A stretch of 64,000 bases of DNA from Paracoccaceae bacterium (GTDB lineage: Bacteria; Pseudomonadota; Alphaproteobacteria; Rhodobacterales; Rhodobacteraceae). Every line of letters starts with the position of its first letter. Position 1 is the first letter of the stretch. The position numbers and the translations under genes are program-made. Below, one piece after another: positions 22,791 to 22,842 of this stretch. The notes under the pieces are model-generated. The model had not been told where the DNA came from and did no database searches. It saw only the letters and a list, made by a program, of their open reading frames with translations. The stretch is taken from contig WOUW01000007.1 of the NCBI GenBank assembly GCA_009773055.1, positions 1 through 64,000 of the forward strand, read 5' to 3'.

Positions 22791-22842
22791 TGTGATCACG
22801 CTTTTCCAAAGTGTGATCACACTTTTCCATCCTGTGATCACA
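22791..22842. promoter_or_regulatory. Three TGTGATCACA/G palindromes at 22791, 22812 and 22833, exactly 21 bp apart, upstream of sucC
   Basis: Direct reading: TGTGATCACGcttttccaaagTGTGATCACActtttccatccTGTGATCACA. Confidence 0.8.

What the first reader, a model, noticed from the sequence alone, without database searches (positions are those of the whole stretch)
22791..22842. Three TGTGATCACR palindromes at exact 21-bp periodicity upstream of sucC
Seen directly: TGTGATCACG at 22791, TGTGATCACA at 22812 and 22833, starts exactly 21 bp apart (two B-DNA turns), separated by similar cttttcca spacers, 114-165 bp upstream of the sucC start. Same-face phasing suggests a cooperatively bound transcription factor. 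The array also lies in front of the divergent aminotransferase, so it could control both.
Basis: partly seen in the sequence, partly recalled or inferred. Interest (0 to 1): 0.8.

Follow-up and report, generated by a model that had tools for sequence, protein, structure and literature searches.

The report
Triple AkgR-type operator before sucC
Three identical landing sites spaced two DNA turns apart sit in front of a Krebs-cycle operon; they almost certainly belong to the already known activator AkgR, whose two-site version is conserved across the whole bacterial family, and the third site is a conserved extra of this one genus.

Summary
The array is real and far beyond chance: TGTGATCACG/A/A at 22791, 22812 and 22833, exactly 21 bp apart (Markov expectation for such a triple in 64 kb about 2e-10). 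In 40 of 41 named Rhodobacterales sucC loci a pair lies at about -140/-118; 62 of 64 neighbouring 8-mers are 20 or 21 bp apart. In the window's genus 31 of 32 genomes carry the triple, against 4 of 397 family-sample genomes. The binding protein is very probably AkgR, a GntR/FCD activator of R. sphaeroides whose published sites contain GTGATCAC and whose predicted targets are sucCD, sdh and 2-oxoglutarate dehydrogenase. This genome encodes an ortholog on another contig. Among well-assembled family genomes ortholog and array co-occur (120 both, 11 neither, 1 array only, 0 ortholog only). In 15 of 37 loci the same 8-mer lies 10-62 bp before akgR itself. The divergent aminotransferase is probably not the selected target: 11 of 30 genus loci keep the triple without it. 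New here: the fixed two-dimer layout and the genus-wide third site. Binding, cooperativity and activation in this organism are inferred, not shown.

The parts
22791..22800 (.). Site 1, TGTGATCACG: the extra, genus-specific upstream palindrome
   Evidence: intact in 27 of 29 aligned genus loci, GCGATCAC in the other 2; family members normally lack it
22812..22821 (.). Site 2, TGTGATCACA: the upstream member of the family-wide conserved pair
   Evidence: position -143 from the sucC ATG; 29 of 29 genus loci intact
22833..22842 (.). Site 3, TGTGATCACA: the promoter-proximal member of the conserved pair
   Evidence: position -122; 29 of 29 genus loci intact
22801..22832 (.). Region holding the two spacers, with a central T/A-rich tract in each (site 2 lies between them)
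   Evidence: central spacer positions 4-10 are 67-80% A/T over 64 spacers from named Rhodobacterales loci
22956..24149 (+). sucC, succinate-CoA ligase beta subunit; first gene of the target operon
   Evidence: NF001913, 583 bits, above the 370 cut-off
24690..25613 (+). sucD, succinate-CoA ligase alpha subunit
   Evidence: NF004230, 438.7 bits, above the 336 cut-off
25360..28533 (+). sucA, 2-oxoglutarate dehydrogenase E1 (long open frame; the match begins at residue 75)
   Evidence: NF006914, 1370 bits
13288..13297 (.). Promoter-proximal TGTGATCACA of the second, paired array, upstream of sdhC
13309..13318 (.). Distal TGTGATCACA of the sdhC pair, 21 bp from the first
   Evidence: 24 of 27 named relatives have a 20-21-bp pair upstream of sdhC
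12733..13140 (-). sdhC, first gene of the sdh operon, second target
   Evidence: TIGR02970 over cut-off
21360..22685 (-). Divergent class-III aminotransferase; neighbour, probably not the selected target
   Evidence: PF00202, 283 bits; absent next to the array in 11 of 30 genus loci

Best explanation
The array is the operator of the GntR/FCD-family activator AkgR in front of sucCD-sucA. Each 10-bp palindrome is proposed to bind one AkgR dimer. Two dimers, 21 bp apart and so on the same DNA face, sit roughly 105-165 bp before the start codon, upstream of the sucC promoter, and activate transcription from there. A matching pair does the same at sdhC, so the TCA-cycle steps from 2-oxoglutarate to fumarate are driven together. 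In this genus a third site, one period further upstream, has been fixed and is proposed to raise occupancy or sharpen the response. Shown by sequence: array, spacing, conservation, co-occurrence with the akgR ortholog, sites in front of akgR in relatives. From literature on R. sphaeroides: motif, target prediction, activator role. Inferred: binding here, one dimer per palindrome, cooperativity, effect of the third site.
For: Motif: GTGATCAC is reported among binding sites of the activator AkgR of R. sphaeroides (PMC6365646). Targets: RSP_0981, a GntR regulator, is predicted to control RSP_0967-6 (sucCD), RSP_0974-6 (sdh) and RSP_0965-62 (2-oxoglutarate dehydrogenase) (PMC4344238), the same operons as here; RSP_0981 = AkgR is from my own knowledge of the 2015 mBio paper, which is not held. 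Layout: 40 of 41 Rhodobacterales sucC loci have the pair, 0 of 39 other alphaproteobacterial ones; 51 of 64 neighbouring copies are 21 bp apart, 11 are 20; the sdhC pair is in 24 of 27. Ortholog in this genome at G000:C63:44635-45279, GntR plus FCD domains; an 85%-identical Rhodobacter protein is named 'AgkR' at NCBI. Co-occurrence in genomes at least 90% complete: both 120, array only 1, ortholog only 0, neither 11, p = 3e-15 uncorrected for kinship. 'Neither' genomes keep sucC without the sites and fall in several places of a SucC tree. A copy of the 8-mer lies 10-62 bp before akgR in 15 of 37 loci. The triple is in 31 of 32 genus genomes with divergent spacers.
Against: No binding or expression data for this organism. 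RSP_0981 itself could not be fetched, so identity of the orthogroup with AkgR rests on targets, motif and one record name. This genome's own akgR has no site in front of it. G019 has the array at sucC without a detected ortholog. The co-occurrence test treats related genomes as independent, and the SucC tree has weak support at several forks. The 20-bp spacing in about a sixth of pairs shows that exact 21 bp is not required. No transcription start was mapped.
Confidence: 0.87

Rival explanations
1. Another regulator binds the array, such as a CRP/FNR-type protein whose half-sites TGTGA/TCACA look alike, or a GntR paralog of AkgR.
For: The half-sites TGTGA and TCACA equal those of CRP (own knowledge); family genomes hold many GntR proteins and a second, about 40%-identical paralog group.
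Against: CRP/FNR half-sites are separated by 4-6 bp, here by none (sequence). The streamlined genome G092 has only 3 GntR genes, and one of them, the AkgR ortholog, lies about 8 kb from its array. Array and this ortholog co-occur, and the 8-mer lies before akgR itself in relatives.
Confidence: 0.06
2. The array regulates both sucC and the divergent aminotransferase, which is why a third site was gained.
For: The array lies between the two divergent genes; in 19 of 30 genus loci the aminotransferase is there.
Against: 11 of 30 genus loci keep the triple without that gene beside it (some of these loci are cut short), and site positions are fixed relative to sucC across the family whatever lies upstream.
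Confidence: 0.12
3. The third site is a recent tandem duplication without function, kept by chance or by copying between repeats.
For: In this genome the two spacers resemble each other (cttttcca).
Against: Spacer 1 and spacer 2 of one genome are no more alike than those of different genomes (permutation p = 0.42), while the site stays intact in 27 of 29 loci.
Confidence: 0.05
4. A DNA- or RNA-level element without a specific protein: phased bending tracts, a methylation or restriction target, or hairpins.
For: Spacers are A/T-rich and phased; TGATCA is a GATC-containing palindrome.
Against: A palindrome without loop makes no RNA hairpin; the family pairs whose neighbours were checked lie upstream of sucC or sdhC, and the array is tied to one regulator gene.
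Confidence: 0.02

Closest known systems
AkgR (RSP_0981) regulon of Rhodobacter sphaeroides
   Same: Motif GTGATCAC; predicted targets sucCD, sdh, 2-oxoglutarate dehydrogenase; GntR-family regulator with an ortholog in this genome.
   Different: Three sites at sucC in this genus instead of two. Whether the 21-bp pairing was described for R. sphaeroides could not be checked, as the primary paper is not held.
GntR-like regulator PS417_07240 of Pseudomonas simiae (deoxyribonate cluster)
   Same: Conserved palindrome GTGATCAC; 32% identical to AkgR (PMC6365646).
   Different: A different, gammaproteobacterial pathway; a single site 40-47 bp before the gene, no 21-bp array reported there.
McbR and other FCD-type GntR proteins with solved structures
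   Same: Same two-domain family; McbR (4p9f) is the nearest solved sequence, E = 1.5e-20.
   Different: Distant, with other targets; no complex with this palindrome is known to me.

Membership tests
AkgR operator | GTGATCAC palindrome | tested here: met
AkgR operator | Located upstream of suc and sdh operons | tested here: met
   sucC array and sdhC pair in the window; same in relatives
AkgR operator | akgR ortholog encoded in the same genome | tested here: met
   G000:C63:44635-45279, GntR plus FCD; co-occurrence over 150 genomes
AkgR operator | Ortholog is the same gene as RSP_0981 | tested here: inconclusive
   RSP_0981 sequence not available; an 85%-identical record is named AgkR
AkgR operator | AkgR binds the site and activates transcription | not testable with these tools
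   needs EMSA, ChIP and a deletion strain
CRP/FNR operator | TGTGA-N6-TCACA or TTGAT-N4-ATCAA spacing | tested here: not met
   half-sites abut with no spacer

The most novel reading that the evidence does not exclude
AkgR works as phase-locked tandem dimers joined through an A/T-rich bent spacer, and one genus has extended the assembly to three dimers, tuning how steeply TCA-cycle transcription answers to the signal. The number of operator repeats would then be an evolvable gain control on central metabolism.
Probability: 0.35. Interest if true: 0.5.

Novelty: new variant of a known kind. Interest (0 to 1): 0.36.

Why it matters
It fixes the operator layout of a central-carbon activator across Rhodobacteraceae and gives a clean natural comparison (two sites against three; present against lost together with the regulator) for asking what the number of operator repeats does to the expression of Krebs-cycle genes. 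It does not reveal a new regulatory system.

Tried and rejected
Looking for a GntR gene inside the window: none on C46. Finding akgR by position in 15 large genomes failed because of too many GntR genes; streamlined genomes solved it. Literature search for TGTGATCACA gave only unrelated papers. The primary AkgR paper is not held. Recent tandem duplication of the 21-bp unit was tested and rejected. The other exact motif copies in this genome (C49, C68, C81) were checked and lie in reading frames, one of them in what looks like hfq, so they were not counted as regulon members. Class-wide, of 292 genomes outside the family only 2 have an exact 21-bp pair (G576, G633), neither near sucC or sdhC, and none has an AkgR match as close as the family orthologs; the best is 42% identical. 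Footprinting of the sucC upstream region did not yield a convincing -35/-10 pair.

Full report
Observation. The three palindromes are at the stated positions and exactly 21 bp apart. With one mismatch allowed the window has 20 matches to TGTGATCACR against 5.6 expected, and no shuffle reaches that. The expected number of 8-mer triples at 21/21 spacing in 64 kb is about 2e-10 under a first-order Markov model. A second 21-bp pair, 13288/13309, lies upstream of sdhC on the minus strand. So within 10 kb both the sdh and the suc operon carry the array. The remaining exact TGTGATCACR copies of this incomplete assembly lie inside reading frames, as does the one at 12751, in the end of sdhC.

Conservation at the family level. 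Among 150 genomes of the family, each of a different genus, 134 have two GTGATCAC within 2-32 bp, and the reversed control pattern has none. In 80 named sucC loci the pair lies at about -140/-118 in 40 of 41 Rhodobacterales (two of these with one mismatch in the second site; the exception is Roseovarius sp. 217, L050) and in none of 39 others. Spacing is 21 bp in 51 and 20 bp in 11 of 64 neighbouring copies. Upstream of sdhC 24 of 27 have the pair. Spacers are A/T-rich in the middle (67-80% at positions 4-10) with G/C-rich positions on either side.

The third site. Only 4 of 397 family genomes have three exact copies in register: this one, a member of the same genus, and G136 and G288, all upstream of sucC. 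Within the genus, 31 of 32 genomes have it allowing up to three mismatches, 28 of the 31 with none; the one without is 70% complete. Compared with the two-site promoters, the two promoter-proximal sites (-143, -122) match the ancestral pair and the site at -164 is the addition. Palindromes stay fixed while spacers diverge, and spacers within a genome are no more alike than between genomes (permutation p = 0.42), so the third site is old and kept by selection rather than freshly duplicated. The genus is probably Tabrizicola or close to it: the best named AkgR relative, 94% identical, is from Tabrizicola sp.. This is an inference.

The regulator. Streamlined relatives have few GntR genes; in G092, G137 and G041 one orthogroup of about 230 residues lies within about 9 kb of an array. 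The same gene lies about 9 kb downstream of sucC in several named loci. This genome has it on another contig, G000:C63:44635-45279, with GntR and FCD domains. A Rhodobacter protein 85% identical to it is recorded as 'GntR family transcriptional regulator AgkR', apparently a slip for AkgR. Published work gives GTGATCAC as an AkgR site motif (PMC6365646) and predicts RSP_0981 to regulate sucCD, sdh and 2-oxoglutarate dehydrogenase genes in R. sphaeroides (PMC4344238). That RSP_0981 is AkgR and an activator of TCA-cycle genes is also my recollection of Imam et al. 2015, which is not held.

Independent links between protein and array. In the 150-genome sample, array and ortholog are both present in 132, both absent in 13, array only in 2, ortholog only in 3. 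One of the last three, G040, has both arrays with one mismatch each, at sucC and sdhC. Counting it as present, genomes at least 90% complete give 120 both, 11 neither, 1 array only and 0 ortholog only (p = 3e-15). This figure ignores kinship. The 'neither' genomes do have sucC, without sites in 260 bp upstream; they fall in about three groups of a single-gene SucC tree with moderate support, which suggests several joint losses. G017 retains a lone GCGATCAC at -138, which may be a relic. In 15 of 37 akgR loci a single GTGATCAC lies 10-62 bp before akgR, in the short gap after a ygjP-like gene, as expected for autoregulation; this genome lacks it. Outside the family none of 292 class genomes has an ortholog of comparable identity (best 42%), and only two have an exact 21-bp pair, neither beside sucC or sdhC.

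The aminotransferase. It is divergent to sucC in 19 of 30 genus loci; 11 keep the triple without it beside the array. Elsewhere in the order no close homolog stands there. Regulation of it in this organism is possible but is not what conserves the array.

Mechanism. Best reading: one AkgR dimer per palindrome, two or three on the same DNA face, activating from an upstream position. Same-face geometry follows from the 21-bp period; activation rests on published work in R. sphaeroides; cooperativity and the effect of the third site are inference. I found no clear conserved -35/-10 in the alignment, so the distance to the start of transcription is unknown.

Novelty. The system is known. New in this analysis, as far as the held literature shows, are the family-wide 20/21-bp two-site layout at both operons, the genus-wide three-site form, the joint presence and absence with the regulator, and the probable autoregulatory site. 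Whether the pairing was described in the unheld primary paper is open.

Noticed in passing
window 13288-13318: A second TGTGATCACA pair at 21 bp, upstream of sdhC; same layout as at sucC, two sites only.
   Followed up: yes
window 12751-12760: Single exact TGTGATCACA inside the last codons of sdhC (Val-Ile-Thr); probably coding coincidence, as relatives rarely have it.
   Followed up: partly
G000:C63:44635-45279 (L122, L208, L241): The akgR ortholog of this genome, downstream of a ygjP-like metallohydrolase gene; many relatives have GTGATCAC in the gap between the two, this genome does not.
   Followed up: yes
L289 (G017), position -138 of sucC: A lone GCGATCAC at the conserved position in a genome without detected akgR: possible relic after loss of the regulator.
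   Followed up: partly
L050 (Roseovarius sp. 217): The only named Rhodobacterales sucC locus with no GTGATCAC at all in 21 kb, although R. mucosus (L052) has the pair.
   Followed up: no
window 8268-10332: Between sdhB and sdhA lie a SAM-methyltransferase-like gene and further open frames, so the sdh operon appears to hold insertions.
   Followed up: no
window 24146-24628: Small predicted secreted protein between sucC and sucD.
   Followed up: no
window 6991-7398: Small open frame on the minus strand whose sequence resembles a BLUF blue-light sensor domain (by eye only).
   Followed up: no
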